Source of the DNA: Marinobacter qingdaonensis
GTDB lineage: Bacteria > Pseudomonadota > Gammaproteobacteria > Pseudomonadales > Oleiphilaceae
Length of the DNA: 64,000 nt
Reading direction: 5' to 3'
NCBI RefSeq assembly: GCF_034555935.1
Contig: NZ_JAYDCJ010000003.1
Location: forward strand, 2,418,001 to 2,482,000
In this document: piece after piece, positions 4,916-45,837 of the stretch
Layout: the number at the start of each line of letters is the position of its first letter
Numbering within the stretch: the stretch's first letter is position 1
Translations under genes and position numbers: made by a program
The notes under the pieces: model-generated
Told to the model about the DNA's origin: nothing
Seen by the model: only the letters and a program-made list of their open reading frames with translations
The model's database searches: none

Positions 4916-5764
4916 TCAAACAGCTCGGGCGCGCTCGTAGACCCATTCGGTGATGGCGTCCACGACAGCCCTGCGTTCGTTTGGCTCTGACAATATGTGA
5001 CTCGCCTCGGGGCGGTGGATGACCGTCAGGTTGTTGTTGAACGGCACGCCACTGAAGCAATCCTGGAATTGGCCGTGGTACTTGTAGTGTTCGTTGCCGA
5101 GAAAGACGTAAAGCATGTCCAGCCCCCGGTCGTTTAGCCGACCAAGCCCCTGTTCAACCTCTTCTTTGGGCGGGTAACTGGCAAAATCCGGCACTTCGAA
5201 GAACTCCTCTTCGATACCGGAGACCTCAGCGCCTTTTCTCACTTTGCGGAGGCCAAGCTTGCGCAGCAAAAAGGCCATCCAGCGAGACAGCGACAGCAAG
5301 CGCGGGGAGTAATGCATCAAGTGGCTTTTCCAGGTCGTGTAGCAATAGCCATCCAGTTGCACGGTTGCGAGGATGCGGGTATCTGCGAGAGCGGTGCGAT
5401 AGGCGGCAAAGGCACCTGAGCAGAGGCCGTAAAGGATAAACCGGTCGAATCCCTTCCAGCGTTGCAGGTGGTCCATGACTTCCTGGATTTCGTCGATGGC
5501 CGCCTGATTGGCGGTGAGTGTGCCGCGCCTTGCTTCGCTGTCACCGATCCCGGAAAAGTCGAAGCGGAAGGTGGTGATGCCGGCTCTTTCCACCAGCGCT
5601 CGCCCCAGAGTGACCGACAGTCGACATGAACCCACTCGGTGAATCACTCCGGAATTCAACAGGATGACCGCTGTACCCGGGGCTTTGGCTTGATCTTTTT
5701 CGGGTTCGCACAGGATTCCTACCAGGGGCAGTTCGTCTCCCACCATTACGACGCGTTCGCGCAT
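4916..5764 (-). CDS. Alpha/beta hydrolase, exosortase A system-associated hydrolase 1 type
   Basis: This 282-residue alpha/beta hydrolase matches the small hydrolase 1 family that accompanies exosortase A loci. The nucleophile elbow reads G113-L-C-S-G117, so Cys115 stands where serine hydrolases have Ser. FRFDFSGIGDSEARRGT is the typical strand and loop before it, and a late SHILSEP His could complete the triad. The ATG at 5764 is preferred because AAGGGA lies a few bases upstream; an ATG at 5779 overlaps the hydrolase 2 stop as TAATG and is the alternative. The family's substrate is not established. Its place right after two synthetases without a thioesterase suggests release, proofreading or transfer of a thioester-bound chain, which is inference. 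Confidence 0.82.
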   Translation of the reverse strand: MRERVVMVGDELPLVGILCEPEKDQAKAPGTAVILLNSGVIHRVGSCRLSVTLGRALVERAGITTFRFDFSGIGDSEARRGTLTANQAAIDEIQEVMDHLQRWKGFDRFILYGLCSGAFAAYRTALADTRILATVQLDGYCYTTWKSHLMHYSPRLLSLSRWMAFLLRKLGLRKVRKGAEVSGIEEEFFEVPDFASYPPKEEVEQGLGRLNDRGLDMLYVFLGNEHYKYHGQFQDCFSGVPFNNNLTVIHRPEASHILSEPNERRAVVDAITEWVYERARAV

Positions 5765-5778
5765 AATGTTCCCTTTCA

Positions 5779-6564
5779 TTAATGCGTCACCTGGTTGAAA
5801 TAGCTCTCAATGGCGTCAATCACCGGTTTTGGCCACAGAATTCCCCCGACATGGTCCACGTAATTCCAATCGTGGGGAGCGGGGGCCAGTTCTGAATAGA
5901 AGCCCGGGCGCCCGGACAGTTGTTGTTTCAGCCTGTCAAAGGTGTCGGATTCGTGGGACACAATCTGGGCAACCGGCAGATTCAGTTCCTGGGCTTGATC
6001 GTGCAGATTCCACTTCGAGATTGATTCCTGGAACCTTGGTGGCATGCTGAAGCCGTTAAAGTGCAGCGTTCCGTCACTGGCGAGGACTCGGGACCGACTG
6101 GTCTGGGTTCCGCCATTTACAATGGAGGACCGGATGCCGCCAACGTACTCGGCGCCGTCTGCGATGGGATCCCACATCACGAGACGAGAGACCTGGTGGT
6201 GACGGTCGGCTGCCTGCGCCGCGAGCAGGGCGCCCAGACGCAGGCCAATGAGCGCGACACGGGGCACTGCGGCCATGTCCACCAGCTCCTGGATGGCATG
6301 ACCTATGTCATCCACCCAATGATCGGCGGTGTGGCCATCGATATCACCGGCCGAGTCGCCGGTCCCCCGGTAGTCGAAGCGCAACACCGGGTACCCGAGC
6401 TCCGCGAGATTGATTGCCAATCGACGCATGGACTTATGGGCCCTCAAGTACTCCTGACCGAAGGGGTTGCACAGTACGATGCCCTCGTTTCGGTTGGTAC
6501 CTTGCCTGGGATGAAAGAGCCCAAGTAGATAACTTTCTGACGGTCCGAAGTAGAACGCTTCCAA
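5779..6564 (-). CDS. Alpha/beta hydrolase-like protein, exosortase A system-associated hydrolase 2 type
   Basis: This member of the second small hydrolase family of exosortase A loci keeps the fold landmarks FGQEYLRAHKSMRRLA and PVLRFDYRGTGDSAGD. At the nucleophile elbow it reads G107-L-R-L-G111, with Arg109 instead of Ser or Cys. I recall similar Arg-containing elbows in this family, but that should be checked. It may therefore be non-catalytic or use another residue. I chose the TTG at 6564 (261 residues): it has GGGAG upstream, follows the NRPS stop by 46 bp, and no ATG or GTG lies between. The longer frame from 6717 would overlap the NRPS gene by 107 bp. It sits between the synthetases and hydrolase 1, so it is probably co-expressed with them. 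Confidence 0.78.
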   Translation of the reverse strand: MEAFYFGPSESYLLGLFHPRQGTNRNEGIVLCNPFGQEYLRAHKSMRRLAINLAELGYPVLRFDYRGTGDSAGDIDGHTADHWVDDIGHAIQELVDMAAVPRVALIGLRLGALLAAQAADRHHQVSRLVMWDPIADGAEYVGGIRSSIVNGGTQTSRSRVLASDGTLHFNGFSMPPRFQESISKWNLHDQAQELNLPVAQIVSHESDTFDRLKQQLSGRPGFYSELAPAPHDWNYVDHVGGILWPKPVIDAIESYFNQVTH

Positions 6565-6610: not shown

Positions 6611-9600
6611 TTACGACGCCCCAAACAGGCGCCGGAAGACTCCCCGACCGGTTTTTCTGACCTTCTCTGTTGATGGTTGTTCGGGTTCCTGATCCACCTG
6701 ACTTCGTTTTTGGTCAATCAGGTTGGCCAGTTGTTCCAGGGTATTCACCCAAAGATCCTGGGGCATGAGCCTGGCCCCAAACGCGTGTTCAATTTCCACA
6801 ATTACTTTGAGCGCAAGCAATGAATGCCCGCCAACGTCCAGGAACTGATCTTCCAGCGCGAAATCGTCTCGCTTCAAAAGCACTTTCCAGATTTCCATCA
6901 GGCCGTTTTCAGTGTCGGTCGGAGCCCTGTGAGAGACACGCCGGGCGGCGGAGCTAGGCTGCATCCCGGTCAGAAGCTTGCGGTTGACCTTGCCTGAGGG
7001 CAGGAGTGGCAAATGGTCATGGGCGGTAAATTGCTGTGGCATCATGTAGTCAGGCAGGAACCGGCGAAGGTACTTGCGCAGTTCGGTGCCGGTCGGCTCA
7101 TCATCTCCTGCGTAAGTGAGGTGCGCAATCAGCCTGTGATCATCGGCGCCTAAATCCTGCACCACGACGGCCGCGTCCGCGACGTTCGGATGGCTGCGGA
7201 GGTTGACCTCGATCTCTTCCAGCTCAATCCGGTAGCCCCGCACCTTGACCTGGTTGTCGACGCGGTCGCCGAACTCTATCTGGCCATCGCGAGTCCAACG
7301 GGCCAGATCTCCGGTCCGGTAAAGGCGCTCGCCCTTCGCCGTTGTGACAAACCGGTTGGCAGTTTGCTCCGGATTGGCCCGGTAACCTTGGGCAAGTCCT
7401 GCTCCACCGATCCAGAGCTCACCATAAACGCCCAGGGGCAGACATTCTCCCTGGTCGTCCAGAACATGAAGTTGGGTGTTAGCCAGTGGCCTGCCAATCA
7501 GTATCCGTGGGCGAGCACCGTTTTTCCCTTCAGCGACCCGATGGCAACTGGTCCAGACGGTGGCCTCAGTCGGGCCATACATGTTCCAGAGCTCAACTTT
7601 GCACCCAAGCAGACTTTCGGCCAGATCTGGTGGCAGTTTCTCTCCACCGATCAGTCCCTTGATGGGTCGCTCGGGAGCGAACCCGGCGTTGAGCATTAGC
7701 CGCCAGGTAGCGGGCGTAGCCTGCAAGGTGGAAATGGCCTGTTCGTTGATCAGATCAATCAATCGATGGGGATCACTGCCGTCTTGAGCAGTGGCAATGA
7801 CCACGGTGGCGCCGACCGATAGGGGCAGGAACAGTTCCAGCAGAGAGATGTCGAAGGCCAAGGTTGTGATGGCCAACAGACGGTCTTGTTCTTTGAGCCC
7901 TGGCTCCCTAGCCACGGCCAGCAGAAAATTGTGAAGGGCCCCGTGGCTGATTTCGACGCCCTTGGGCACGCCGGTTGAGCCGGAGGTGAAAATGACGTAG
8001 GCCAGTGTTTCCGGGGCCAGTGCGCAGGGAATCGGATCGGTTGGCTGCTTATCAATGGCAGCTTGTTCCTGGTCCATCAGCACAGTTAGGCCAGAATGGG
8101 CCGACCTTGCCGCCTGCTGGTCGGAGGTGGTTGCCAGTAGCTTTGGCTGGGCCACCGCCAGAATGGCGCGAATCCGTTCTTCCGGGTACACGGGATCAAG
8201 CGGGACATAGGCGGCGCCCAGTTTCCACAAGGCCATTACCGTGGCAGGCAGGTCCGCATCGCGGGGCAGGAGGAGGGCTACGACATCTCCGGCCTCGACC
8301 CCTTGCTCGGCAAAGAAACGGGCGAGGCGGTTCGCCCGTTGGTCCAGGCTGGCGTAGCTAAGGGAGCGCCGGTCATCGACGCTGGCCGGCTTGTCCCCTT
8401 GTTTATTCACCTGCTTCTGGAATTCGCCAAGGAATCCCTGGTTGAAGGACCAAGCGACTTCTGTCTGATTCCATTCCGCAATCATGGCCTTCTCTTCCTT
8501 GTTTGCACAGACCAGGCTCTCCAGCCTGATGTCGTCCTGTTGTTCACACAGGGCCACGGCACTGTCTTTAAAATAGCTCAAAAATCCCTCAATTGTCCCG
8601 CGTTCAAAGAGCTGAACGGGGTATTCAAACCCGGCTTGTAATCCGTCGGTGTGGCGCTTGAACCAGACGTCCAGATCGGTTTCAACACCCACCCGATCCA
8701 GATTTATCTGGAACCGTTCGATGCCGTCCATCTGGTCTTGCCGGTTCCGGACGTCCTGATAGTTAAACAGAGTTTGTGCGATGGGATTGCGTGACGTATC
8801 ACGGGTTGGATTGATGGTTCTGACCAGCAGGTCGAACGGTGCATCCTGGTGTTCAATGGCCTCAAGCAGCGTGTCTTTGACGTGCGTAAGCAGGGACTCC
8901 AACGACGGGTTTTCAGTGACCTTGAACCGGCAAACCATCACGTTGATCATGGGGCCCATCAAATGACTCAGTTCGTCCTGGTTACGGGCATAAACCGGGA
9001 CATTGATAATCAGATCCGATTGCCTCGTGAAGCGATGCAGCATCAGCACGTAGAGAGTCAGCAGGACCATGAAAAACGTGGTTTGATGCCGAATGGCGAG
9101 TGCTTCAAGGCCGGCTACGGTTGTGCCATCAAGCTCGAACTTTACACCCTCAGACCGATGGGGTTGGGCATAGGGTCGTTCGAAATCGGTTGGCAGCTGC
9201 AATACTGGTAGTTCACCGCCAAGCCGGGTTTTCCAGTAGTCCAGGTGGGCGTCCATCACGTCGCTATTCAGCCATTCCCGTTGCCAGACTGCGAAGTCCC
9301 GGAACTGGACTGGCAGCGCTGGTAGAGGGTTGCCCAGGCCCTGACGATAGGCGTTGTAAAGCGTGCACATCTCTTTAAGCAGCAGGTCGAAAGACCAGCC
9401 GTCGAACACCATGTGATGGATCATCAGGAACAACATGTGGTCTTGATCACCCACCCGAATCAGCGAAACCTTGAAGAGGGCGTCAACACCAACATCGAAG
9501 CCATTAGCGGCCTCCTCCCTTAAGGCTTCCTCCAAAGATTGGATGTCGGAGGCGCCATAATCGGCCGGCGATCTGGGCTTGAGATCGATGGCGCGGTCGT

Positions 9601-12600
9601 GATTGATCACGATCTCGACTTCACCTTGGGGGTTGATGAAGTTGGCTCGCAGAATTTGGTGCCGTTGCAATATGGTGTTGAACGCCTGCTCCAGCGCGCG
9701 AACGTCAAGTGTGCCGCGGAAACGGAACAGGGCGGGTAACGTCAACGCGTGGGAATCTGGAACAATTTCCTCGTGCAGGAACCAGACCTGCTGCTGAGGA
9801 GTGGCGTAGACGATCGCCTCTTGGTCCACTTGGCGGATGGGTGGAAGTTTGCGCGCGCTGGTCGAATTCTGCTCAATCAGTTTGGCCATGGCCCGCACGC
9901 TTGAGGCTTCGAACAGTTTGCCCAGGCCGAAACTGATGCCATAGCGGCTCTTGATTTGGCTCAGCATCTGGGTGCCCAGCAGAGAGTGGCCGCCGGCGTC
10001 AAAGAAGTTTTCGGTCACACTGATGGACTGAAGGCCCAGCACATCGGCCCACAGCGCGCATAGTTCGGATTCTGTTTGAGTAGCTGGCAGGACGAATTCG
10101 GATTTGGGAACCAGAGTCCTATCCGGTTCGGGCAGGGCCTTCCGATCAACTTTGCCGCTGGAGGTCAAGGGGAGCGTCGGCAATTGGATAAAGTGCTGGG
10201 GCAGCATGTATTCCGGCAGATAATGGCCGATGTGTTCTTTCAAATCCTGAAGTTGTTTCCCAAGGTCTGCGCTGGATACCAGATAGGCAACCAGACGCTG
10301 ATCGTTTTTGCGATCCTCCCGCGCCAACACCGCACACTGGGTAATACCGGAGAACTTCAGGATAACGGATTCAATTTCACCGAGCTCAATGCGCAAGCCC
10401 CGGAGTTTGACCTGGAAGTCGTTGCGGCCCATGTAGTCCAACACGCCATCTGCACGCATCTTGACCAGGTCGCCGGTGCGGTAGGCCCTGAAGGGCGCAT
10501 CGCTGAAGGGATCCTGGATGAATCGATCGGCTGTCAGTTCCGGCCGATTCATGTAACCCCGGGCTACCTGAATCCCGGCAATCAGAAGTTCTCCAACCAG
10601 TCCCGGCGCCAACAAGTGCAGGTGATTGTCCACGACATAAAGGCGGGTGTTAGGCAGGGCTGTTCCGATTGGAACTGAGTGATTAGAGATTAACCGCCCA
10701 CATTGCCACCAACTGGCATGCACTGCGGCTTCGGTGGGGCCGTATAGGTTCCAGCACTCGGCATCGGGAAAGGCCGCCAGCATGCGAGTTTCGAGTTCCG
10801 TGCTCACCGCTTCACCGGTAAGCAAGATTCGTCGGACGCTGGGGCAATTGGTTTGGTTATAGGCGTCCAAGAACAGGTAAACCAATGAGGGGACAAAATG
10901 AATGTGGGAAATACCCTGATCGCGGATCAGACTGGCGAGGTAGTCTGGGTCTTTGTGTCCACCCGGCTTGGCGATGACCAGTTTGCACCCAACCATTAGA
11001 GGTAGAAAAAGCTCGCACAACGACACATCAAACGTGTAAGGCGTCTTCAGCATTACGGCATCCGATGGCATCAGCGGAAATGCCTCCTGCATCCACAACA
11101 TGTGGTTGCAGATCGAGCGGTGCTCCAGCAGGACCCCCTTGGGCTTGCCGGTAGACCCGGAGGTGTAGATCACATACGCCAGCTGCGACGGCGAGAAGGG
11201 GCATTCGGGGCGGCGGTCATCGAACTGGTCGAGGGGCAGGTCGGAACCGTCCAGGGCATAGCTTTGCACCGAGTCAGGTACCCGGGGTTGCAGGCCGGAA
11301 AGGGTCAGTACGAACCTTGCCTTGACCTCCTCGAGAATGAACGCGAGGCGGTCGCGGGGATGGTCCGGGTCCAGGGGTAAGTAGGCGCCACCGGCCTTGA
11401 GGATGCCGTTGATCGCCACCAGCATCTCGATGGACCGGTCCATCAGGATAGGAACAATGCTGTCTGCGGTGACCTGCTGCTCACGCAGCCAGTGCGCCAG
11501 GCGGTTGGCGCGTGCGTCCAGTTCCCGGAACGTGAGTTCGTGATCCTCGAACACCAGGGCGATGCGATCCGGAAAACGCTCCGCCGCCGCCTCCACCAGC
11601 CCGTGCAGGCTGGTGTTGTCCAGGTCGTAGTCCCGGTGCACCGAACGCCACTGCTCCCGGTAAAGGGCCAGAGCCTCGTCCGTCAGCAGCCTGTGCTGGC
11701 CAAGGGGGGCGTCGGGCGCCTTCAGCACCTCGTCCATCAGCAATTGCAGCTCGGCCATGCGCTGACGCATGGTTGCGGTATCCCACAACTGCAGATTGTG
11801 TGTGCACTCCATCACCGCGGACCGGTCGGACAGGGTGATGTTCAGGTTCAGATCGAAGTTCTCATAGGCCCGAGGATTGGAGGCGAACGCCGCCTCCAGG
11901 CCGGCGAAGTGAAAATCGGATTCGTTGGCCTGATCGACATTGAAAATCACCGACACCAGCGGTGGCTTGGACGGATCCCGGGCCACGCCCAGGGTTTGCA
12001 GCAAGGTGCCGTAGGTCAGGTACTGGTGCTCGAAAGCCTCGAGCATCTGCTGCTGGGTCTTGCGCAGCAGGGTTTCGAAGGAATCTTCGGCCGACACCTG
12101 GATGTACAGCGGGATGATGTTGACGCAGTGGCCCACCAGACTGTGTTCCTGCTTGGCCATCTGACCGGCGAAGGGGATGCCCAGTACGATGTCCGCGCAC
12201 CCGGAAATGCGGTGGAGATAGCCCACGAAGGCGGCCATCAAAGTGGTGGTGATGGTGCTACTGTTTTTAGCCGCCAAGGTCTTCAGTCCCTTCAGCAGAT
12301 CCATCGGCAGTGGGGTGTCCAGTCGGTACGCGGCAAAGCTTCGGCTCAGCGGTCGGGGCCGGTCATAGGGCAGGTCCAACGTTGGAATCCCGCTGGCAAA
12401 CCGGGCGGTCCAGTAGGCAGCGCTTTGCTCACGCAGGCTCTCGGTGTACTCGCTGCGTTCCCAGTCGGCGTAGTCGCTGAATCGGGGGGGCGGTTCCAGG
12501 GCGGGGGCGTTGTTTGAGTCCACCGTTTCCGAGTACAAATTGCCGAGTTCACTGGCCAGGATGTACAGCGACCAACCGTCGCAAATGGAGTGGTGAAGGG

Positions 12601-13057
12601 TCAGCAGAACACGGGTGTCGGTGTTGTCGATCTGGATGACATCCAGCCGGGCCAGTGGCCCATTGAACAGATCGAAGGCCTCGGTGACCGCGCTGCGGGC
12701 CAGCTCATCAAGCTGTTGCTGCTTTTCGGCCTCCGGCAACGTGATGAAATCATGGACAAGGATGGGCGCGGGACGGTCCTGGTAGATCACCATCTGTTCG
12801 CCGTCGTTGCTGAAACATCCCCGCATCGCCTGATGACGCTGCCAGAGCGCGTCCAGGGCGCGGGTCAGCGCCATCAGATTGACCGGGCCCTTGAGGTTTA
12901 TAAAGACGGACTCGTTGAACGCCGCGCTGGCCTCGTCACCGAACTGGGCGGCCAGCCACACCTCGCGTTGTGATTCCGTGGAAACGATGGTGCCCTCCAG
13001 GTTGCCGAACTGAAAGGGGTCGTGCCGGTCAACGTACTTCAAGACAGCGGTGTTCAT
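6611..13057 (-). CDS. Two-module nonribosomal peptide synthetase, C-A-PCP-C-A-PCP
   Basis: Domains of this 2148-residue synthetase, in order, are: condensation domain 1 with HHSICDG (155-161); adenylation 1 (about 485-985) with YTSGSTGKPKG (631-641), YGPTE and the SSGKVDRK lysine; carrier 1 with Ser1025 in GGHSL; condensation 2 with HHMVFDG (1214-1220); adenylation 2 (about 1530-2035) with FTSGSTGVPKG; and carrier 2 with Ser2079 in GGHSL. There is no epimerisation, methylation, thioesterase or reductase domain. Reading the pocket by eye gives D-V-C-H-L-G-L-V-H-K for A1 (no confident match) and D-I-L-Q-I-G-M-V-W-K for A2, close to known glycine codes. It starts 6 bp after the upstream PKS/NRPS stop, so it should accept that enzyme's product. 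Release of the finished chain is unexplained; the hydrolases downstream are candidates. Confidence 0.95.
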   Translation of the reverse strand: MNTAVLKYVDRHDPFQFGNLEGTIVSTESQREVWLAAQFGDEASAAFNESVFINLKGPVNLMALTRALDALWQRHQAMRGCFSNDGEQMVIYQDRPAPILVHDFITLPEAEKQQQLDELARSAVTEAFDLFNGPLARLDVIQIDNTDTRVLLTLHHSICDGWSLYILASELGNLYSETVDSNNAPALEPPPRFSDYADWERSEYTESLREQSAAYWTARFASGIPTLDLPYDRPRPLSRSFAAYRLDTPLPMDLLKGLKTLAAKNSSTITTTLMAAFVGYLHRISGCADIVLGIPFAGQMAKQEHSLVGHCVNIIPLYIQVSAEDSFETLLRKTQQQMLEAFEHQYLTYGTLLQTLGVARDPSKPPLVSVIFNVDQANESDFHFAGLEAAFASNPRAYENFDLNLNITLSDRSAVMECTHNLQLWDTATMRQRMAELQLLMDEVLKAPDAPLGQHRLLTDEALALYREQWRSVHRDYDLDNTSLHGLVEAAAERFPDRIALVFEDHELTFRELDARANRLAHWLREQQVTADSIVPILMDRSIEMLVAINGILKAGGAYLPLDPDHPRDRLAFILEEVKARFVLTLSGLQPRVPDSVQSYALDGSDLPLDQFDDRRPECPFSPSQLAYVIYTSGSTGKPKGVLLEHRSICNHMLWMQEAFPLMPSDAVMLKTPYTFDVSLCELFLPLMVGCKLVIAKPGGHKDPDYLASLIRDQGISHIHFVPSLVYLFLDAYNQTNCPSVRRILLTGEAVSTELETRMLAAFPDAECWNLYGPTEAAVHASWWQCGRLISNHSVPIGTALPNTRLYVVDNHLHLLAPGLVGELLIAGIQVARGYMNRPELTADRFIQDPFSDAPFRAYRTGDLVKMRADGVLDYMGRNDFQVKLRGLRIELGEIESVILKFSGITQCAVLAREDRKNDQRLVAYLVSSADLGKQLQDLKEHIGHYLPEYMLPQHFIQLPTLPLTSSGKVDRKALPEPDRTLVPKSEFVLPATQTESELCALWADVLGLQSISVTENFFDAGGHSLLGTQMLSQIKSRYGISFGLGKLFEASSVRAMAKLIEQNSTSARKLPPIRQVDQEAIVYATPQQQVWFLHEEIVPDSHALTLPALFRFRGTLDVRALEQAFNTILQRHQILRANFINPQGEVEIVINHDRAIDLKPRSPADYGASDIQSLEEALREEAANGFDVGVDALFKVSLIRVGDQDHMLFLMIHHMVFDGWSFDLLLKEMCTLYNAYRQGLGNPLPALPVQFRDFAVWQREWLNSDVMDAHLDYWKTRLGGELPVLQLPTDFERPYAQPHRSEGVKFELDGTTVAGLEALAIRHQTTFFMVLLTLYVLMLHRFTRQSDLIINVPVYARNQDELSHLMGPMINVMVCRFKVTENPSLESLLTHVKDTLLEAIEHQDAPFDLLVRTINPTRDTSRNPIAQTLFNYQDVRNRQDQMDGIERFQINLDRVGVETDLDVWFKRHTDGLQAGFEYPVQLFERGTIEGFLSYFKDSAVALCEQQDDIRLESLVCANKEEKAMIAEWNQTEVAWSFNQGFLGEFQKQVNKQGDKPASVDDRRSLSYASLDQRANRLARFFAEQGVEAGDVVALLLPRDADLPATVMALWKLGAAYVPLDPVYPEERIRAILAVAQPKLLATTSDQQAARSAHSGLTVLMDQEQAAIDKQPTDPIPCALAPETLAYVIFTSGSTGVPKGVEISHGALHNFLLAVAREPGLKEQDRLLAITTLAFDISLLELFLPLSVGATVVIATAQDGSDPHRLIDLINEQAISTLQATPATWRLMLNAGFAPERPIKGLIGGEKLPPDLAESLLGCKVELWNMYGPTEATVWTSCHRVAEGKNGARPRILIGRPLANTQLHVLDDQGECLPLGVYGELWIGGAGLAQGYRANPEQTANRFVTTAKGERLYRTGDLARWTRDGQIEFGDRVDNQVKVRGYRIELEEIEVNLRSHPNVADAAVVVQDLGADDHRLIAHLTYAGDDEPTGTELRKYLRRFLPDYMMPQQFTAHDHLPLLPSGKVNRKLLTGMQPSSAARRVSHRAPTDTENGLMEIWKVLLKRDDFALEDQFLDVGGHSLLALKVIVEIEHAFGARLMPQDLWVNTLEQLANLIDQKRSQVDQEPEQPSTEKVRKTGRGVFRRLFGAS

Positions 13058-13063
13058 AGGTGG

Positions 13064-16000
13064 TCAACCTGCCCATTTCTCATACTGGTTTTTGTCCGTC
13101 TTGGAGGGGATGTACCAGGCCGCCTTGCCATTTTCGTCGCGACCAAGGCGCGCGCCTTCAATCGGTGGCTTACCCGCAAGCTCCTGATTGGGCCGAGCGG
13201 CGACGTCCGGTGCCGGAAAGAAGTCCATCGCGATCATCTCATCCATCGCCTCCTTGAAGGCCGTGATGATCGCTTCGATGTCCTCGTCGCTGTGGGCCGT
13301 GGTGATGAAGGTTGGGCGGGCGTCCCAGACGTGAATGCCTTTCTCCCGGAGCATCACGTAGATCAGTTCTTCGAACGGGATGTCCTGGGGAATCTTGATC
13401 TTGCACATGGAGCCACAGTGTTCGATCTTTACCGGCGCGCCCACCAACTGCGCATGCTGGTTGATCTGTCCCACCAGGTAGTCGGCCCGCTGGTTCAGTT
13501 GGGCCTGGAGCTCGGGTGCCTCCACCAGCTTGCTCAGCACGGCCACTGCCGCCGCCATAACCAACGGGTGACGCACAAACGTGCCGGCAAAATAGGTGAC
13601 ACCCACTTCCGGTGCCGAGTCGTCGCCAAACTGCCACTGTCCGCCGTCCAGCGCATCCATGTACTTGGCCTTGCCAGAGATGGCACCGATGGGCATGCCG
13701 CCGCCGACAATCTTGCCGTAGGTGCAGATGTCGGCGTCGATGCCGTAGTGGCCTTGCGCGCCTCTCGGATGGATGCGGAAACCGGTGATGACCTCGTCAA
13801 AAATCAGGGCAATGTGGTGCTCGGTGCACAGGTGGCGGGCCTTCTCCAGGAAGGCTTTGGGTTGCAGTTCCGGATTGCGGCTCTGAACCGGCTCCACGAG
13901 CAGGGTGGCAATGTCGTCGGCGTGCTCGCGAATGTAGTCGAGCGAGGCGTCACTGCCGTAATCCAACACGATCATGCTTTCAGCGGCCGACTCGGGTATG
14001 CCGGCAGCAGCGGGTGCCGCGTAACCGGCACTACCGCGGGTGACGATCACCTCATCGTGGATGCCGTGGTAGTCGTTCTCGAAGATCACCACCTTTTCCT
14101 TGGCGGTGACGGTGCGCGCCAGTCGCATGGCGCCGAGGACGGCTTCGGACCCGGTGTTGCAGAACGCCACCCGTTCGTTGCCGGTGACCTGGCAGAACAA
14201 CCGGGAGGCCTCAGCCACCAGGGGATGCTGCGGGCCAATTTCGTAGCCGGTGTTCAGCTGACGGGCAATGGCGTCCCTGATGAAGGGGGCAGAATTGCCG
14301 AAAATGTTGCTGCCGAATCCGCAGGTGATATCGATCAGTTTGCCGCCGTCGATATCCCAGAGATAGGGGCCCTCGGAGCGTTCCACCACGATCGGGTAGA
14401 TCACTTCCTTGATGACATTGCGGAACCCTGACACCACCCGCGGATCCGCCAGGTGTTTTCGGTTGTCCTGGGCGAACTGTTTGGATCTGGCGAAGCGGGT
14501 GTTGTAGCGCTGCGCCAGGCTATCGAAGTTCTCCCGCTGCCGGGCGGTCATGTCGTTGCTGCGCTTGACGTTGATCCGGGTGCCGGCACCGAAGGGTTTG
14601 AGCCCAGAGGCTTTGTCGGTGCGCTTGATGGCGTGGTCAGCGACCGGTGCGGTGGCGCTGGGGGCGCTGCCGCCGGCGGCTGGTTGCGGTGACAGTGAAG
14701 ACAACAGGGTCAGCTGGCCCTGCAGTATCTGCATCTGCTGCTGAAGCAGGGCATGGACATCGCCGTGACCCAGGTTCAGGGCCTGGGGCGGCGGGCTGAC
14801 TGTCCCGGTTGCTGGGTTCGGTGGTTGCAGCCCGGCTGCCGGCGCAGGTGTGGCCGAGGTTTGAGCAGCCTCCAGCTGAACGCCCTCGGCAACGAGGTAG
14901 TCGGCCAGCTTGTCCAGGTTGCCGCAGTCATTGAGCAGTTGCCGGAAGCTGACATTCACCTTGAACTTTTTCTTCAGCTTCAGTGTGGATTGGGTCAGCA
15001 GCAGCGAATCCAGACCCAGTTCAAAGAAGGTTGCGCCAGAGTCCGCCTGGCTGAGGTCGATGCCGGAAATATCTGAAAACAGCGAGCGCAGCTTCTCGAC
15101 AATGGCGTCTTTCATGTCTGGTCCTGCCAAAACCTGGGGGATGGAAACCGGTGCTATGGCATCGGCCACGAGGCTGGCCGCCGGGTCGGTGGACACCGAG
15201 GCGGCTGACAACGGCTCAATAACGTGAGTTCGGTGCTGGAACGGGTAGGCGGGCAGCCTGACGCGCACCTCAGGGCTGGCGGGTCCGCAGGGCCAGTCAA
15301 CCGTGAGGCCCTGGCTCCAGGCCAAACCAAGTCCGCGGGTGAACGACCGCAGCTCTCCGTCCGCTTTCCCGGCATCCGCCAGAAGCGGCACCAGGGCCAG
15401 ATCCCTTTGATCGTCGAGGTTCTGCATGGCCATGCCGCACACGGTGCCTTGCGGGCCGCACTCCAGCACAATCAGATTCTTCATCGCAGCGAGGGTCTGG
15501 CAGCCTTGGCGGAACTGGACCGGCTGGCGGATCTGCTGGCCCCAGTAATGCAGGTCGGTGGCCTGCTCCGGCGTGATCCAGTCCCCGGTCACGCAGGAGA
15601 TGAAGGGAAACTCCGGAGGCTTCATGGCGATGCCGTCAAGCTGGCGGATGAACTCGTCAACGGCCGGGTCCATGGCAGGGGAATGGAAGGCGTGGGAGGT
15701 GTTCAGCGCGCGAACTTTGATCCCGTTCTGTTCCAACACGCCGGCGAGGCTCGCGATGGCCTCGTGGGTGCCCGAGAGGGTACAGGCATCGGCGGTGTTT
15801 TCGGCCGCGATTACCACGTTGCTGCTGAGGAGTGGCTGCAGCTGATCGACACTGGCGCGTGCTGCCAACATGGCCCCGGACGGTTGTGCCTGCATGACCT
15901 CGCCACGGGTCATCACAACACGCAGGGCGGTGGCCAGATCAAACACCCCGGCCACGGTGGCGGCAGCCAACTCACCGATGCTGTGGCCGATAGCGGCCTG

Positions 16001-19000
16001 GGGCTGCACGCCCAGCTGTTGCACCGCCGTTGCCAGGGCATATCCCAGACAGAACAGGCTGATCTGGGTTTTCTGGGTGTCATTCAGTGGATCGCCAGAG
16101 TCGAAGACCAGGGCCTTGAGGTCCAATGCATGGTCGCTCGCGAGAAGGTCCGCGCAATGATCGAAGGCGTCCCGGAATTGGGCGACCTGCGCGTACAGCT
16201 CACGCCCCATGCCCGCTACCTGACTGCCCTGGCCGGGGAAGGCGAACACCACGGCAGCGGAGCTGAAGGCGGCGCTGGCGTCCTCGGCGTCCTCCACCAC
16301 GGTCATCAGCTCATGCACGTTAATCTGCTGGGGCACGGCCGTCCGGTAGCGGAAGGCGCGCCGGTGCCGGATCAGTGCGGCTGCCAGGCCGGCCCGTTCC
16401 TCCGGTGCCTGCATCTGATTCAGCAACGGCTGATAGCGAGACACCGTGGCGGCCAGCGCCTCGGGGGAATGGGCGCCGAAACACAAGGGAACCCAGGTCG
16501 GCGTGGTCCCGGATTCTGCCGCGTCCGGGCGGTTAACGCCCCGCAGCACCACGTGGGCATTGGTGCCGCCAATGCCGAACGAACTGACCCCGGCGGCCCG
16601 GTCGTGTTTGGGGCCGGGCCATTCGGACGATTCGGCAGCGACGATGAACGGGGTTTGCTCCAGATGGAGTTCCGGATTTGGGGTGGCAAAATTGATGGAT
16701 TGGGGAATCTGGCCCCGATCAATCGACAGCGCGCACTTAATCAAGCCAACCACCCCTGCGGCCGCGGTCAGGTGGCCAAAGTTGCTTTTCACCGAGCCCA
16801 GGCGGCAGAACTGTTTGTCCGAAGTGTGCTCGGAGAAGGCTTCATTCAGCGCCGACACCTCAATCGGATCCCCGATCGGCGTCGCGGTGCCGTGGGCTTC
16901 CAGGTAACCGATGGTGCGGACATCAATTCGGGCATCCCGGAGGGCGCCAAGAATGACCGATTTCTGCCCCTGAACACTGGGGCCGGAGAAGCTGCCTTTC
17001 TCGGCACCGTCGTTGTTGACCGCAACTCCGGAAATCGCGGCATAGACATAGTCGCGGTCCCGGAGCGCCTCAATCAGGGGCTTGAGCACCACGATGCCGC
17101 CACCGTCGCTGAATACGGTACCCGAGCTGTCCTTGTCGAAGGGGCGGGTGTGCCCGTCCCGGGTGTAGATGCTGCCTTCCTGATGGGTGTGGGGCTGTTG
17201 CTGGGGAAACGCGATCGACGCGCCGCCGGCGATGGCCATGTCACAGCGGCCCTGGCGGATGGCCTCGACCGCTTCCGCCACCGCCACCAGGGAGGTGGAG
17301 CAGGCGGTGTGGATGCTCAGCGCCGGACCAACCAGGTTGAGCTTGTGCGCCAGCCGGGTGGCCGCATAGTCCTTCTCGTTCGCGACCATCGCTTGAAGTG
17401 ACCCGTAATCTTCAAGTTTTTCAGCATTCTGGAGAACGTTATTCAAGTAGTAGGTGTTGTTGCCGACGCCGCAGAACACGCCAATCCTGCCGGCAAACTG
17501 CTCCGGGTCGTAGCCGGCGTTTTCCAGTCCCTGCCAGGCAAGTTCCAGCAGCAGCCGTTGCTGCGGATCGATGAACTCGGCTTCGATCGGGCTGATGCCG
17601 AAAAACCGGTCGTCGAAGCCCAGGGGATCGTCGAGCACGCCTCGGGCATTGACCCGGCCGCTTTGTGGATCAGTCGGGGCAAAGAACGTGATGGTCTCCC
17701 GACCCTCAACGAGGTTCTGCCAGAACTCCTCGAGGTTCGAGGCTCCGGGCACTCGCAGGGCCATGCCAATAATCGCGACGTCCCGAACCTGGGCATCCGG
17801 AAGCTCATGGCTGCTGTCGGTCCGGGCCAGAGTTGTTGGCACCGACTGCCTGGCCAGCGCGTAGTCGAGGAATTTGCTCAAGTTCCGATACTGGAACAGG
17901 GCATAAACCGGGATGGACAGACCCTGGTGTTCGTACAAGCTGGCCGCAATGCGATTGGCGGCCAGGGAATCCATGCCCAGATTCAGAAGGTTGTCCTCCT
18001 CAGACAGCTCAGCAAGGTTGAGCTCCCTCTGGATCAGATCTTTCAACCGTTGCCGAGCGTCCGGGGCGTGCCCCACGGCACTTGACGGTTCAGCGGCGAG
18101 GCTTTCGATCATCGATTTGCGATCGATCTTTCCCGAGGGAGTCTTCTGCAATTGACTGAGCCAGTGGAACCGGCTGGGAATCATGTACCCCGGCATCGAG
18201 GACTGCAGCAGGCCTTTGAGGCGCGCCTCCAGCTGGCTGTCCTGGTCGGTCGCCGTCACAAACGCGATCAGTTTTTTTTGACCCTCGACGTCCTGTACCG
18301 CGGCGGCGGCTTCGTCCACCAGCCCGGTATCGAGTAGCCGGGCCTCGACTTCGCTGAGTTCGACGCGATAGCCGCTGATTTTCACCTGGTTGTCGATGCG
18401 TCCGTGGTACAGCAGCTCGGACTTGCCGTTCCAGCTCACCAGGTCGCCGGTGCGATAGGCCCGTTGGCCGCCGAGGTGGGACAGAGTCACGAATCGTTGG
18501 GCGGTCTGCTCCGGACTGTTGATGTAGCCATGGGCCAGAACCGGACCGCTGATGTACAACTCGCCGACCTCGCCGGCTTCCAGTTCTTGCTGTTCATCAT
18601 CGAGAATCAGCAGTTCCGCACGGTCGATCGCCTGTCCGATCGGCGGCAGGGCCGGCCAGTCATCCGCCGGCGGATACAGAATGTGTTCGCTTACCACGTG
18701 GGTCTCGCAGGGCCCGTATTGATTGCTCAGGGTGGCATTGGGCAGGGCGTTGAAAGCCTTCCGGAGTTCCTTGCTGACCACAAGTTGTTCGCCCGCGGTG
18801 ATGACTTCCGTCAGTGCTGCGGGGTAGAGATTCAATCGGTTGGCCCACATCACGAGCTGCAGCAGCGCGATGTAGGGTAAAAACATGCGCTCGATGCCCT
18901 GTTCGTCTATGTACTCCAGCAGCTGTCGGAAATCCTGCTTCATGTCGTTGGTGATCAGATACAGCGTGCCGCCAAGGGTCAGGGTGGAGAAAATTTCCTG

Positions 19001-19618
19001 GAACGAAACGTCGAAGCTGAGGGCGGAGAATTGCAGGGTTTTCGGACGTGCGCCCGCCCGATAATGGCCATTTTGCCAGTGGATCAGGTTATCGAGGGTG
19101 CCATGGTTCATCAGCACGCCCTTGGGCCTACCGGTGGAGCCGGAGGTGTAGATGACGTAGGCATTGGCCTCTGGACCTGCTCCTGCGGATTGCGGAATGG
19201 CTTCCGGAGGCTCGTTGAGGTCGATCGCCCTGAGATCCAGATGCTGCCCGACTGGGGACCGGAAATCGTCGTTGTCCGTGATGGTCAGCTCGACCCCCGC
19301 GTGGCTCACCATGTAGGCGAGACGTTCTTCCGGATACAGGGGGTCCAGGGGCAGGTAAGCGCAGCCATGCCTGAGCACCGCAATTATGGCGATGATGGCC
19401 GACTCGCGACTGTGGGTGTGGATGGCAATCGGGCTGCCCTCAGTCACACCGGATTCGGAAATCCATGCCTGGACGGCCGTGGCACGGGCGCTGAGATCGT
19501 GATAGCTGAGGGTGCTGTCCGGGGAGCAAAGAGCAGGCGAATGGGCACTGTCCCGAGCCGTGCGTTCAAATTGGGCCAGGAAGCCGGGTACAACTGGAGT
19601 AGACTCTCTAGCATTCAT
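13064..19618 (-). CDS. Hybrid NRPS/PKS with terminal aminotransferase, A-PCP-KS-AT-ACP-AMT
   Basis: Domains of this 2184-residue enzyme: loading adenylation (about 20-510; YTSGSTGRPKG 157-167, TPSGKIDRK); carrier with Ser551; ketosynthase (612-1030) with Cys773, His910 and His949 all present; acyltransferase with Ser1213 in GHSIG and HAFH 1309-1312, which indicates malonyl-CoA; second carrier with Ser1538; a Pro/Gln-rich linker; and a class III PLP aminotransferase (about 1690-2170) with Asp1941 and Lys1969. No ketoreductase or dehydratase is seen. The logic is that an amino acid is loaded, extended by two carbons to a beta-keto thioester, then transaminated to a beta-amino acyl chain, as in the mycosubtilin/iturin initiation enzymes. 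The pocket reads D-V-Q-F-I-A-Q-V-V-K, close to proline codes. GGAAGG precedes the ATG at 19618. It is the first gene of the operon. Confidence 0.95.
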   Translation of the reverse strand: MNARESTPVVPGFLAQFERTARDSAHSPALCSPDSTLSYHDLSARATAVQAWISESGVTEGSPIAIHTHSRESAIIAIIAVLRHGCAYLPLDPLYPEERLAYMVSHAGVELTITDNDDFRSPVGQHLDLRAIDLNEPPEAIPQSAGAGPEANAYVIYTSGSTGRPKGVLMNHGTLDNLIHWQNGHYRAGARPKTLQFSALSFDVSFQEIFSTLTLGGTLYLITNDMKQDFRQLLEYIDEQGIERMFLPYIALLQLVMWANRLNLYPAALTEVITAGEQLVVSKELRKAFNALPNATLSNQYGPCETHVVSEHILYPPADDWPALPPIGQAIDRAELLILDDEQQELEAGEVGELYISGPVLAHGYINSPEQTAQRFVTLSHLGGQRAYRTGDLVSWNGKSELLYHGRIDNQVKISGYRVELSEVEARLLDTGLVDEAAAAVQDVEGQKKLIAFVTATDQDSQLEARLKGLLQSSMPGYMIPSRFHWLSQLQKTPSGKIDRKSMIESLAAEPSSAVGHAPDARQRLKDLIQRELNLAELSEEDNLLNLGMDSLAANRIAASLYEHQGLSIPVYALFQYRNLSKFLDYALARQSVPTTLARTDSSHELPDAQVRDVAIIGMALRVPGASNLEEFWQNLVEGRETITFFAPTDPQSGRVNARGVLDDPLGFDDRFFGISPIEAEFIDPQQRLLLELAWQGLENAGYDPEQFAGRIGVFCGVGNNTYYLNNVLQNAEKLEDYGSLQAMVANEKDYAATRLAHKLNLVGPALSIHTACSTSLVAVAEAVEAIRQGRCDMAIAGGASIAFPQQQPHTHQEGSIYTRDGHTRPFDKDSSGTVFSDGGGIVVLKPLIEALRDRDYVYAAISGVAVNNDGAEKGSFSGPSVQGQKSVILGALRDARIDVRTIGYLEAHGTATPIGDPIEVSALNEAFSEHTSDKQFCRLGSVKSNFGHLTAAAGVVGLIKCALSIDRGQIPQSINFATPNPELHLEQTPFIVAAESSEWPGPKHDRAAGVSSFGIGGTNAHVVLRGVNRPDAAESGTTPTWVPLCFGAHSPEALAATVSRYQPLLNQMQAPEERAGLAAALIRHRRAFRYRTAVPQQINVHELMTVVEDAEDASAAFSSAAVVFAFPGQGSQVAGMGRELYAQVAQFRDAFDHCADLLASDHALDLKALVFDSGDPLNDTQKTQISLFCLGYALATAVQQLGVQPQAAIGHSIGELAAATVAGVFDLATALRVVMTRGEVMQAQPSGAMLAARASVDQLQPLLSSNVVIAAENTADACTLSGTHEAIASLAGVLEQNGIKVRALNTSHAFHSPAMDPAVDEFIRQLDGIAMKPPEFPFISCVTGDWITPEQATDLHYWGQQIRQPVQFRQGCQTLAAMKNLIVLECGPQGTVCGMAMQNLDDQRDLALVPLLADAGKADGELRSFTRGLGLAWSQGLTVDWPCGPASPEVRVRLPAYPFQHRTHVIEPLSAASVSTDPAASLVADAIAPVSIPQVLAGPDMKDAIVEKLRSLFSDISGIDLSQADSGATFFELGLDSLLLTQSTLKLKKKFKVNVSFRQLLNDCGNLDKLADYLVAEGVQLEAAQTSATPAPAAGLQPPNPATGTVSPPPQALNLGHGDVHALLQQQMQILQGQLTLLSSLSPQPAAGGSAPSATAPVADHAIKRTDKASGLKPFGAGTRINVKRSNDMTARQRENFDSLAQRYNTRFARSKQFAQDNRKHLADPRVVSGFRNVIKEVIYPIVVERSEGPYLWDIDGGKLIDITCGFGSNIFGNSAPFIRDAIARQLNTGYEIGPQHPLVAEASRLFCQVTGNERVAFCNTGSEAVLGAMRLARTVTAKEKVVIFENDYHGIHDEVIVTRGSAGYAAPAAAGIPESAAESMIVLDYGSDASLDYIREHADDIATLLVEPVQSRNPELQPKAFLEKARHLCTEHHIALIFDEVITGFRIHPRGAQGHYGIDADICTYGKIVGGGMPIGAISGKAKYMDALDGGQWQFGDDSAPEVGVTYFAGTFVRHPLVMAAAVAVLSKLVEAPELQAQLNQRADYLVGQINQHAQLVGAPVKIEHCGSMCKIKIPQDIPFEELIYVMLREKGIHVWDARPTFITTAHSDEDIEAIITAFKEAMDEMIAMDFFPAPDVAARPNQELAGKPPIEGARLGRDENGKAAWYIPSKTDKNQYEKWAG

Positions 19619-19931: not shown

Positions 19932-20534
19932 GTGAAAACACTGAAACGGAGTTTGGGACTGCTCAAACGAAAACTTGGCCGCATGGTCGAGATCAAAGCC
20001 GGGATTCTACTGCACCAGCCGGTCGCAGCACGTGAAGGTGCCGGCATTCCCGGGGCACAGTTGGCCAGGGCGTCGGTATACCGGCCCGACCTGGACTACT
20101 CCAAAGACGAATTCACCCGGCGTAACCTCCGACAGAACGATCTCTACGAGCTGCTTGTAGACCGGCGGCCCGTATGTTTTGGCTGGGTCGCCCGGGCCGG
20201 GGCGCGGGTCGGGATTCTTCACGATATCCAGATGACGGTCCCCGACCGGGCGTTTTACATCTGGGATTGCGTGACGCCACCGGAATATCGCGGGCGCGGT
20301 TATTTTCAGAGCCTGCTGAAACAGCTGGTAAGTTCGCGGGACACGGGCGCCAATCTGGCCTTGGTGGCCGTCGATACCCGCAATACGGCCTCCAGAAAGG
20401 CGCTGGCCAAGGCCGGATTCCAACCCCTGTTCTCCTATCTGAGTATTCGGGTGTTGGGCCGGGTGGTGCTGGCCGTCGCCAACAGGGGCCACCGCCTGTC
20501 CCAAGCCCAGATCCTGTTCGATCAACTTGCGTAG
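19932..20534 (+). CDS. GNAT-family N-acetyltransferase
   Basis: This is a 200-residue single-domain GNAT. The acetyl-CoA pyrophosphate loop reads YRGRGYFQSLLKQL, preceded by IWDCVTPPE. NTASRKALAKAGFQPLFSYL is the usual late helix and strand of the fold. The chosen start is GTG at 19932, since no ATG fits and the N-terminus is basic and helical. It is the first gene of a plus-strand set diverging from the PKS/NRPS operon, with a 142-bp gap before the next gene. Related acetyltransferases occur in exosortase A loci. The acceptor may be an amino sugar or a free amine of the peptide product, but nothing in the sequence decides this. Confidence 0.82.
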   Translation: MKTLKRSLGLLKRKLGRMVEIKAGILLHQPVAAREGAGIPGAQLARASVYRPDLDYSKDEFTRRNLRQNDLYELLVDRRPVCFGWVARAGARVGILHDIQMTVPDRAFYIWDCVTPPEYRGRGYFQSLLKQLVSSRDTGANLALVAVDTRNTASRKALAKAGFQPLFSYLSIRVLGRVVLAVANRGHRLSQAQILFDQLA

Positions 20535-20676
20535 GTACATCAGGCAATGGCTCGTGCTTGCAGCTTTCAGGACCTTGGCATATCGTTAATTTGTGCCCTG
20601 CCAGATGATGTACCACAGGAAGTTGGTATTGGCTGAGGCGCGCGGACGCAGTAGTTCGTTGAATAGGGAAGTCGAC

Positions 20677-21531
20677 ATGAACTTATTTGATCTTTCCGGG
20701 CCGGATGCCATTGAAACCATACCTTTTCCCGAGCACAAGGATGGTTTGCTTCCTTACATAGAACGCCGTCAACCGGTCCTGCTCTCGGGCGTTCGTGCCG
20801 CGCTTCCATTTACCCGCCAGTGGAATTACGACTATTTCCGTGAGTCGTTGACGTCGATTCGAATTCAGCGCAAATCCGAGGATGGCATCTTCCATTACCT
20901 GGGGTTTGAACGGGTCCCGATGTCGGACTTTAACGAGGTCATGGAGACGACCCACAACGGCTACGCGTTGGAGCCCTTGTTGGGGCATGGGGTCTCGGAA
21001 GATCTGCCCGCTGACATTTCCGTGACCTTGCCCGCCTTTGTGCCTGACACAGGCTTTCGCGTGTCCAATCTGTACATCGGCCCAGGCCAGAACAAATCAC
21101 TGCTGCACTACGATGAGACCCACAGCCTGCTCATGATGCTGGAGGGGCGGAAGCGGTTCATCCTGTTTTCGCCCGATCAGAGCGACTGCATGTACGCCTA
21201 CAGCCCGTTCAGCCTGAAAGCCATTCGGGAAAATCGGGTCGTCGACAGCAAGATCGACTGTCAGAATCCGGACTTCACGACCTTTCCCAAGCTTAGCCGT
21301 GCCAGGGGGCTTGCCGGCTGGCTCGAGGATGACCAGGCCCTATTTATCCCCGCTGGCACCTGGCATTTCATTGAAGCCGAGGGTCGCAATGTATCGGTCA
21401 ACTATTTCTGGTTTCAGAACCGGTTCAAGGATTGGCTGCATCAACCATTGCTGGATTTCTGGCTCAAACGCCGTGCTATCGGTGTGCTTGACCAATTACG
21501 TAAGGTAAAGCACAAGCTGTCGGCGGCGTGA
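20677..21531 (+). CDS. Cupin-like (JmjC-related) Fe(II)/2-oxoglutarate oxygenase
   Basis: This is a 284-residue protein of the cupin_8/JmjC-like group. The metal triad is visible: His144-x-Asp146 in SLLHYDETHS and His230 in PAGTWHFIEAEG. LEGRKRFILFSPDQ, which often contributes the lysine or arginine that binds 2-oxoglutarate, follows the first motif. Members hydroxylate side chains of proteins or small molecules. The ATG at 20677 has AGGGAAG upstream; longer frames to a GTG at 20593 lack support. The gene lies between an acetyltransferase and a FemAB-like gene and may hydroxylate a residue of the nonribosomal peptide, which is inference from position only. Confidence 0.82.
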   Translation: MNLFDLSGPDAIETIPFPEHKDGLLPYIERRQPVLLSGVRAALPFTRQWNYDYFRESLTSIRIQRKSEDGIFHYLGFERVPMSDFNEVMETTHNGYALEPLLGHGVSEDLPADISVTLPAFVPDTGFRVSNLYIGPGQNKSLLHYDETHSLLMMLEGRKRFILFSPDQSDCMYAYSPFSLKAIRENRVVDSKIDCQNPDFTTFPKLSRARGLAGWLEDDQALFIPAGTWHFIEAEGRNVSVNYFWFQNRFKDWLHQPLLDFWLKRRAIGVLDQLRKVKHKLSAA

Positions 21532-21584
21532 AGGCCCGGCCGTGTCGGAAACAATCAACCTATAGGTCAGGAACGCTTAATACC

Positions 21585-25140: not shown

Positions 25141-25153
25141 GGTGTCTGATCGC

Positions 25154-27853: not shown

Positions 27854-27900
27854 GGCCCTGGTCCTTTTCCTTACGGCGCCTGGTTTGCACATCCGGTTGT

Positions 27901-29274: not shown

Positions 29275-29364
29275 GGCAGCAACATTTCCCTTGTTGAAAA
29301 CCCTGTTAAGTTGACGAGACACTTTTGATCCTGGAGTGTCTTAACTTTGATTCTTGTCTGAATG

Positions 29365-45831: not shown

Positions 45832-45837
45832 TTCGCC

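What the first reader, a model, noticed from the sequence alone, without database searches (positions are those of the whole stretch)
6611..19618. PKS/NRPS assembly line with a built-in aminotransferase inside an exosortase A locus
The sequence shows A-PCP-KS-AT-ACP-aminotransferase followed 6 bp later by C-A-PCP-C-A-PCP, in one operon with the two exosortase A-associated hydrolases and an acyltransferase. Typical exosortase A loci instead carry a separate acyl-CoA ligase, a PLP decarboxylase and a stand-alone acyl carrier protein with these hydrolases (Haft and colleagues' families). The giant enzymes could be a fused, elaborated form of that set, making a beta-amino peptide that decorates the polysaccharide or the sorted proteins.
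Basis: partly seen in the sequence, partly recalled or inferred. Interest (0 to 1): 0.82.

Follow-up and report, generated by a model that had tools for sequence, protein, structure and literature searches.

The report
Peptide factory swapped into exosortase locus
A marine bacterium carries, inside the gene cluster that builds its surface sugar coat and sorts surface proteins, a giant enzyme line that should make a short unusual peptide, and it feeds the same pair of odd enzymes that other bacteria feed with a much simpler amino-acid loader, which suggests what that unexplained pair does.

Summary
PKS1 (13064-19618) is A-PCP-KS-AT-ACP-aminotransferase; NRPS2 (6611-13057, 6 bp on) is C-A-PCP-C-A-PCP without thioesterase; then hydrolase-2-like, hydrolase-1-like and acyltransferase genes, in an XrtA/PrsT/PrsR/PrsK and glycan locus. 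Predicted product: Pro, malonate-extended and beta-aminated, a Ser-like residue, Gly. In the genus PKS1 occurs in 18 of 124 genomes, 1.1-5.6 kb from xrtA in the 15 that have xrtA over its curated cut-off. The classical ligase and decarboxylase are over cut-off in 0 of 124; conversely 28 stretches chosen for the decarboxylase show no C, KS or aminotransferase domain. Both arrangements share the hyd2-hyd1 pair. Unexpected: every hyd1 read has a cysteine nucleophile, every hyd2 an arginine there, and 7 genomes fuse the two. I read the pair as a Cys-dependent acyltransferase moving an amino-bearing acyl chain from a carrier protein onto an acceptor, most likely the surface glycan. Acceptor and chemistry are inferred.

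The parts
13064..19618 (-). PKS1: A(Pro-like code DVQFIAQVV)-PCP-KS-AT-ACP-class III aminotransferase
6611..13057 (-). NRPS2: C-A(DVCHLTLVH, Ser-like, unsure)-PCP-C-A(Gly-like DILAIGMVW)-PCP, no thioesterase match
5779..6564 (-). hyd2: alpha/beta-hydrolase fold, Arg at the nucleophile elbow (GLRLG), nearest family TIGR03101 (below cut-off)
4916..5779 (-). hyd1: alpha/beta-hydrolase fold with Cys120 at the nucleophile elbow (GLCSG) and His261, nearest family TIGR03100 (below cut-off)
3752..4897 (-). membrane acyltransferase (Acyl_transf_3), possible O-acyltransferase
   Evidence: found in 4 of 5 named Marinobacter loci with the block, L011-L014 but not L021
2019..3623 (-). putative surface lipoprotein (lipobox by eye) with Golvesin_C and a TSP3 repeat; also present in loci without PKS/NRPS
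19932..20534 (+). GNAT acetyltransferase, first gene of the divergent cluster
20593..21531 (+). Cupin_8/JmjC-like putative hydroxylase; co-occurs with PKS1
21528..22703 (+). FemAB-like GNAT (Acetyltransf_6); co-occurs with PKS1
22727..23635 (+). formyltransferase; co-occurs with PKS1
23641..25170 (-). XrtA exosortase with EpsI domain, over TIGR03109 cut-off
25154..27892 (-). PrsT TPR protein
27901..29322 (-). PEP-CTERM-box response regulator PrsR
29411..31561 (-). histidine kinase PrsK
33..1966 (+). glycosyltransferase (33-791) and DegT-type sugar aminotransferase (770-1966); glycan genes continue for over 20 kb upstream of the window (L009, L010)

Best explanation
The block is a thioester factory plugged into an XrtA/exopolysaccharide locus. 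PKS1 loads an amino acid (Pro by code), adds one malonate unit and converts the beta-keto thioester to a beta-amino thioester; NRPS2 adds a Ser-like residue and Gly and leaves the chain on the last carrier, as it has no thioesterase. The hyd2-hyd1 pair then takes the chain off: hyd1 by acyl transfer through Cys120-His261, hyd2 as a non-catalytic partner (Arg where the nucleophile should be). The chain is passed to an acceptor, most likely an amino or hydroxyl group of the exopolysaccharide made by this locus. In classical XrtA loci the same pair is fed by a ligase, a carrier protein and a BtrK-like decarboxylase instead. SHOWN: gene order, linkage in this genus, the either-or distribution of the two gene sets, the constant Cys/Arg, fusions of hyd2 with hyd1. 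INFERRED: substrates, acyl transfer rather than hydrolysis, and the acceptor.
For: Linkage: PKS1 lies 1.1-5.6 kb from XrtA in 15 of 15 genus genomes that have both PKS1 and XrtA over cut-off; 3 more PKS1 genomes (G085, G089, G092) are fragmented and gave no over-cut-off XrtA. Two feeders, one pair: in 28 stretches chosen for the decarboxylase, a stand-alone ligase is in 24, and C/KS/AMT domains in 0; PKS/NRPS loci gave no such decarboxylase or carrier; TIGR03098 and TIGR03099 are over cut-off in 0 of 124 genus genomes. The canonical decarboxylase of G407 is closest among solved proteins to BtrK, which acts on a carrier-bound glutamyl group (E 5e-78); the aminotransferase domain to MycA's (E 5e-109). 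hyd1: Cys and His in 120 of 120 (the best 120 of 385 homologues), Cys in 45 of 45 locus ORFs of both kinds and Cys and His in 31 of 31 regions of loci L220-L249, a set that overlaps the last. hyd2: Arg in 120 of 120 (best 120 of 820), 49 of 49 and 30 of 30 (overlapping). Models put both residues at the strand-helix elbow. hyd2 and hyd1 share one reading frame in 7 genomes. In fetched genus loci with PKS1 or NRPS2, hyd2 is in 16 of 16 and hyd1 in 15 of 16 (the other stretch ends before it); both in 0 of the 19 others.
Against: The block exists without exosortase: Corallococcus (L016, L028) and L018 have it with no exosortase found, so XrtA is not needed for its function. Nine of 30 genomes with XrtA over cut-off show no NRPS domain in the fetched stretch (one, G074, on a 14-kb contig; another, G024, has an NRPS 25 kb off), and 4 more have a different NRPS without the hyd pair. 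In canonical loci hyd1 was found in only 16 of 28, and 8 of 14 canonical hyd2 matches are weak (34-59 bits). In the order, G453 has the block on a 456-kb contig without exosortase. No experiment shows transfer to a glycan. Structural neighbours of hyd1 are mostly serine esterases, lipases and thioesterases, so hydrolysis stays possible. Product prediction rests on recalled adenylation codes. The linkage P value (1e-8) ignores relatedness.
Confidence: 0.5

Rival explanations
1. The assembly line makes a free, secreted small peptide natural product (signal, protease inhibitor or antibiotic), and hyd1 is simply its releasing thioesterase, with hyd2 a helper; its place next to xrtA reflects a hotspot for variable genes.
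For: The block occurs in myxobacteria without detected exosortase. The zone after xrtA is variable across the genus and also hosts a different NRPS, in the one case scanned with its own thioesterase. hyd1 resembles esterases and thioesterases.
Against: In the genus all 15 PKS1 genomes with XrtA over cut-off have it within 5.6 kb of xrtA. The same hyd pair stands in canonical loci with no assembly line. Glycan genes flank the block.
Confidence: 0.33
2. The chain is attached to the sorted PEP-CTERM proteins or serves only their processing, not the polysaccharide.
For: PrsK/PrsR/PrsT/XrtA close to the block; a PEP-CTERM protein at the far end of the locus (L010).
Against: The block occurs without detected exosortase elsewhere, and many XrtA loci lack the hyd pair.
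Confidence: 0.1
3. The giant enzymes descend from the classical ligase, decarboxylase and carrier by fusion.
For: The NRPS A domains match TIGR03098 weakly (up to 231 bits against a cut-off of 592).
Against: TIGR03098 also matches other ligases in the same genome as well or better (up to 259 bits); the PLP enzymes belong to different families; hyd clades are separate.
Confidence: 0.03

Closest known systems
Exosortase A accessory set (TIGR03098 ligase, TIGR03099 decarboxylase, carrier protein, TIGR03100/TIGR03101 hydrolases)
   Same: Same hyd2-hyd1 pair with the same unusual residues; same kind of glycan/XrtA locus; carrier-bound amino-acyl chemistry expected
   Different: Ligase, decarboxylase and carrier replaced by PKS1 and NRPS2; hydrolases below the family cut-offs and in separate clades
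Mycosubtilin/iturin-type aminotransferase PKS module (MycA)
   Same: Class III aminotransferase domain after an ACP; closest solved relative by far; makes beta-amino acyl chains (function of MycA recalled)
   Different: Here the starter is an A-domain amino acid, not a fatty acid (MycA's starter recalled), giving a beta,gamma-diamino unit; no thioesterase; exosortase context
Butirosin side-chain system (BtrJ/BtrI/BtrK/BtrH; roles of BtrJ and BtrI recalled)
   Same: Amino acid on a carrier, modified there by a PLP enzyme, then moved to a sugar compound by BtrH, called an acyl carrier protein:aminoglycoside acyltransferase in the passage read in PMC10318531; the canonical XrtA decarboxylase is closest to BtrK
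   Different: BtrH has a papain-like fold, hyd1 an alpha/beta-hydrolase fold; no BtrK-like gene was found in the window

Membership tests
XrtA/PEP-CTERM locus | XrtA, PrsT, PrsR, PrsK over curated cut-offs | tested here: met
   223.7/208, 391.4/312.2, 674/502.6, 669.9/300 bits
XrtA/PEP-CTERM locus | PEP-CTERM proteins encoded in the genome | tested here: met
   5 matches over the 16-bit cut-off; best E 3.1e-6; controls are over the cut-off in 2 of 14, so the weaker ones are unsure
Classical XrtA accessory set | TIGR03098 ligase and TIGR03099 decarboxylase over cut-off | tested here: not met
   0 of 124 genus genomes including the window's own. Limits: one search scored the 10 best candidates per genome and rang in no control; TIGR03099 does ring over cut-off in 18 of 299 phylum genomes. 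The own genome has two sub-cut-off TIGR03099 matches (239.9 and 204.3 bits against 478.45) about 1 Mb or more from the locus
Classical XrtA accessory set | stand-alone carrier protein beside the hydrolases | tested here: not met
   none by tblastn (E <= 1e-4) in the window plus the 20 kb before it, using one canonical carrier as query; a very different carrier could be missed
TIGR03100 hydrolase 1 | score over 168.45 bits | tested here: not met
   80.7 bits, best family
TIGR03101 hydrolase 2 | score over 202.75 bits | tested here: not met
   102.8 bits, best family
hyd1/hyd2 pair in the wider sense (my definition) | Cys elbow plus His in hyd1, Arg elbow in hyd2, adjacent genes in that order | tested here: met
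Aminotransferase-bearing PKS/NRPS | KS, AT, ACP and class III aminotransferase with intact catalytic residues | tested here: met
Cys-dependent acyltransferase | acyl transfer shown biochemically | not testable with these tools
   only residues and fold were examined

The most novel reading that the evidence does not exclude
Both feeders deliver an acyl chain that carries a free amine (a decarboxylated amino-acid chain in classical loci, a beta-amino peptide here), and hyd2-hyd1 puts it on the glycan. That amine could be the nucleophile onto which exosortase A transfers cleaved PEP-CTERM proteins, much as the glycine bridge of Gram-positive walls serves sortase. The pair would then build the missing acceptor of the exosortase reaction, at least in the XrtA genomes that have it.
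Probability: 0.07. Interest if true: 0.93.

Novelty: new variant of a known kind. Interest (0 to 1): 0.62.

Why it matters
The two 'exosortase A-associated hydrolases' are named as hypothetical families, and my searches found no described job for them. Finding that two unrelated thioester-building gene sets take turns in front of the same pair, that one member had a cysteine nucleophile and the other an arginine in place of a nucleophile in every copy read, and that the two are sometimes one protein, turns them into a testable enzyme: a carrier-protein-to-acceptor acyltransferase. It also predicts that exopolysaccharides of exosortase bacteria carry amino-acyl or peptide groups that ordinary sugar analysis would miss.

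Tried and rejected
Descent of the giant enzymes from the classical genes: rejected. Exclusive tie to exosortase: rejected because of Corallococcus and L018. Within-genus swap between the two gene sets: cannot be shown, since no genus genome has the classical set over cut-off; the either-or pattern is between lineages.

Literature: full-text searches in the held open-access library listed no paper whose title or abstract start describes an NRPS/PKS in an exosortase locus or a Cys nucleophile in these hydrolases (lists were capped at 10 to 20); subscription papers are mostly not held. Haft 2006 (PMC1569441) was only searched for six terms, none present. Passages only were seen in PMC10318531, PMC8233155 and PMC2922099; all other papers were seen as search listings. 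The meaning of adenylation codes, of the AT and KS motifs and of MycA's function, and the Cys enzymes named in the full report, are recalled.

Limits of the computations: only the 3 best candidates per genome were scored, the 10 best, the 6 best. In one search two canonical hyd1 proteins (G378, G420) were first filed as hyd2; corrected. The profiles were built from part of the proteins they then found. In one search, 8 weak canonical hyd2 rows were left out before the tree; one row labelled hyd2 (G265) is a fused protein and falls with hyd1; the canonical hyd1 branch has only 91/83 support, the root is a midpoint, and the program warns of long branches. Structure neighbours of hyd1 and hyd2 gave no functional clue beyond the alpha/beta-hydrolase fold. 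Solved-structure searches with both alignments found only distant esterases and hydrolases.
Full report
OBSERVATION. The two giant genes are as described. Pfam and NCBIfam give A-PCP-KS-AT-ACP-aminotransferase for 13064-19618(-) and C-A-PCP-C-A-PCP for 6611-13057(-), with 6 bp between. Pfam shows no ketoreductase and no thioesterase. The genes that follow encode two alpha/beta-hydrolase-fold proteins and an Acyl_transf_3 membrane protein. The best families of the first two are TIGR03101 and TIGR03100, but at about half the cut-off scores. XrtA, PrsT, PrsR and PrsK are all over their cut-offs. Upstream of the window lie an initiating sugar transferase, a GNVR/Wzz-type chain-length protein, an XrtA-associated tyrosine kinase just under its cut-off, the XrtA-associated FemAB protein over its cut-off, a putative O-glycosylation ligase below its cut-off, glycosyltransferases and a pyruvyl transferase, and a PEP-CTERM protein. 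So the block sits between glycan genes and the exosortase genes.

PREDICTED PRODUCT (inferred). Adenylation codes computed against a recalled GrsA fragment are DVQFIAQVV (Pro-like), DVCHLTLVH (Ser-like at best) and DILAIGMVW (Gly-like). Of the 120 listed relatives of PKS1 (best of 7202), 98 gave a code, one of them partial, for an A domain before the KS, and 72 of these begin DVQF, Pro-like. Variants in the genus have a Val-like starter and a single Gly-like module (G112, G004, G117, G060); L028 is Pro-Gly-Gly, L018 Pro followed by three Gly, L036 Val-Gly-Gly, all by code. The aminotransferase domain is closest, among solved proteins, to that of mycosubtilin synthase.

DISTRIBUTION IN THE GENUS. 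Of 124 genomes, 30 have XrtA over cut-off. PKS1 is found in 18: 13 at 65-74% identity (one cut by a contig end, one split in two pieces) and 5 at 38-41% (one cut by a contig end). In the 15 with XrtA over cut-off, the two matches are 1.1-5.6 kb apart; Fisher P 1e-8, uncorrected for relatedness. I read 35 genus loci, some on one side only: 14 have PKS1 (besides the window), 2 have NRPS2 with the hyd pair but no PKS1, 4 have a different NRPS of about 1940 aa (the one scanned, in G069, ends in a thioesterase) and no hyd pair, and 15 show no NRPS domain in the fetched stretch. Of these 15, 6 belong to below-cut-off exosortases, one lies on a short contig, and one (G024) has an NRPS 25 kb from XrtA. 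In the 16 with PKS1 or NRPS2, hyd2 is in all and hyd1 in 15, the last stretch ending before it; neither is in the other 19. The formyltransferase, FemAB-like and cupin genes are in 13 of the 14 PKS1 loci and 0 of the other 21, which points to a tailoring role for the PKS1 product.

THE CLASSICAL SET. No genus genome has TIGR03098 or TIGR03099 over cut-off (rang in no control genome and scored 10 candidates per genome). Nearly all genus genomes have sub-cut-off TIGR03099 matches, as expected of diaminopimelate and similar decarboxylases; those of the window's genome lie about 1 Mb or more from the locus. In 299 phylum genomes, 18 have TIGR03099 over cut-off and 28 reach E 1e-110. I read stretches of 14-60 kb around all 28. 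A stand-alone ligase is in 24, and in 17 of the 18 over cut-off; a carrier-like gene in 17 of those 18; condensation, KS or aminotransferase domains (tblastn, E <= 1e-10) in 0 of 28. hyd1 was found in 16 of 28 counting the fused one; of 14 hyd2 matches 8 are weak. The order carrier-hyd2-hyd1 is plain in G159. The decarboxylase of G407 is far closer to BtrK (E 5e-78) than to diaminopimelate decarboxylases (best E 1e-50). So both gene sets should present an amino-bearing acyl chain on a carrier to the same pair.

THE PAIR. hyd1 has GLCSG or a near variant at the nucleophile elbow: Cys and His are constant in the 120 listed homologues of 385, Cys is in 45 of 45 ORFs of both kinds with His in all 42 that reach it, and both are in 31 of 31 regions of loci L220-L249, which overlap that set. 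hyd2 has Arg there in the 120 listed of 820, in 49 of 49 (8 weak canonical matches included) and in 30 of 30. Predicted structures (mean pLDDT 87 and 91) place both residues between the strand and helix that form the elbow. hyd2 and hyd1 regions share one reading frame in 7 genomes (G265, G656 and those of loci L236, L241, L246, L248, L249), the hyd2 region of L241 being weak. A tree puts window-type and canonical-type proteins in separate clades within both hyd1 and hyd2, the canonical hyd1 branch with modest support. Cys in this fold is known from polyester synthases and some peptide-synthetase thioesterases that favour transfer over hydrolysis (recalled).

OUTSIDE THE GENUS. Corallococcus (L016, L028), a myxococcote bin (L018) and an uncultured bacterium (L036) have PKS1, NRPS2, hyd2 and hyd1 together. 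Of 18 loci with PKS1-like genes, 17 lay in genomes that could be searched for exosortase: 4 gave a match and 2 were over cut-off; none of the 7 Corallococcus genomes nor that of L018 did; L029 could not be searched. In 390 genomes of the order, 37 have a hyd1-like match, the window's own included. I read 15 loci from 14 genomes outside the genus: all have both hyd1 and hyd2; 10 have KS or C domains nearby, 3 have the classical set, 2 are on short contigs. Of 17 order genomes with hyd1 searched, 13 have an exosortase over the TIGR02602 cut-off. It lies on the same contig as hyd1 in G566 (about 3 kb), G504 (about 19 kb) and G586 (about 31 kb) among PKS/NRPS types and in G544, G656 and G649 (about 19-32 kb) among classical ones, and not on the 456-kb contig of G453; in the rest the contigs are different. 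Whether these are XrtA proper was not tested.

VERDICT. The anatomy is real and the linkage in this genus is strong. The best-supported mechanism is a thioester factory feeding a two-part Cys acyltransferase that decorates the surface glycan; the acceptor is the weakest link.

Noticed in passing
L134:1644-2306(+) (G029 locus; G113 has an ORF of the same length in the same place): A phosphopantetheinyl transferase-like gene (below the family cut-offs) sits directly after xrtA in a locus that has NRPS2 and the hyd pair but no PKS1.
   Followed up: partly
L111:8170-13998(+) and the loci of G035, G100, G039: A different NRPS with Gly- and Val-like codes; the one in L111 ends in a thioesterase. It stands near xrtA in four other genus genomes without the hyd pair.
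   Followed up: partly
L250 (G586): Two tandem hyd2-hyd1 pairs in one PKS/NRPS locus, with an Acyl_transf_3-like gene nearby.
   Followed up: no
L157 (G077): PKS1 is in two pieces, with a stop inside the match, so probably inactive or a sequencing error.
   Followed up: no
genus genomes: Two further classes of exosortase (about 175-206 and 127-155 bits to TIGR03109) occur in most other genus genomes; in four of the five loci of the first class read on both sides, the exosortase has only 31-33% identity to the window's and PrsT/R/K lie on its other side.
   Followed up: no
window 42908-53784: A cluster with a MadB-like ATPase, a protein with BamD-like repeats, a TolQ/ExbB-like, two ExbD-like and an AgmX/PglI C-terminal-domain protein, resembling a gliding or outer-membrane energising system.
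   Followed up: no
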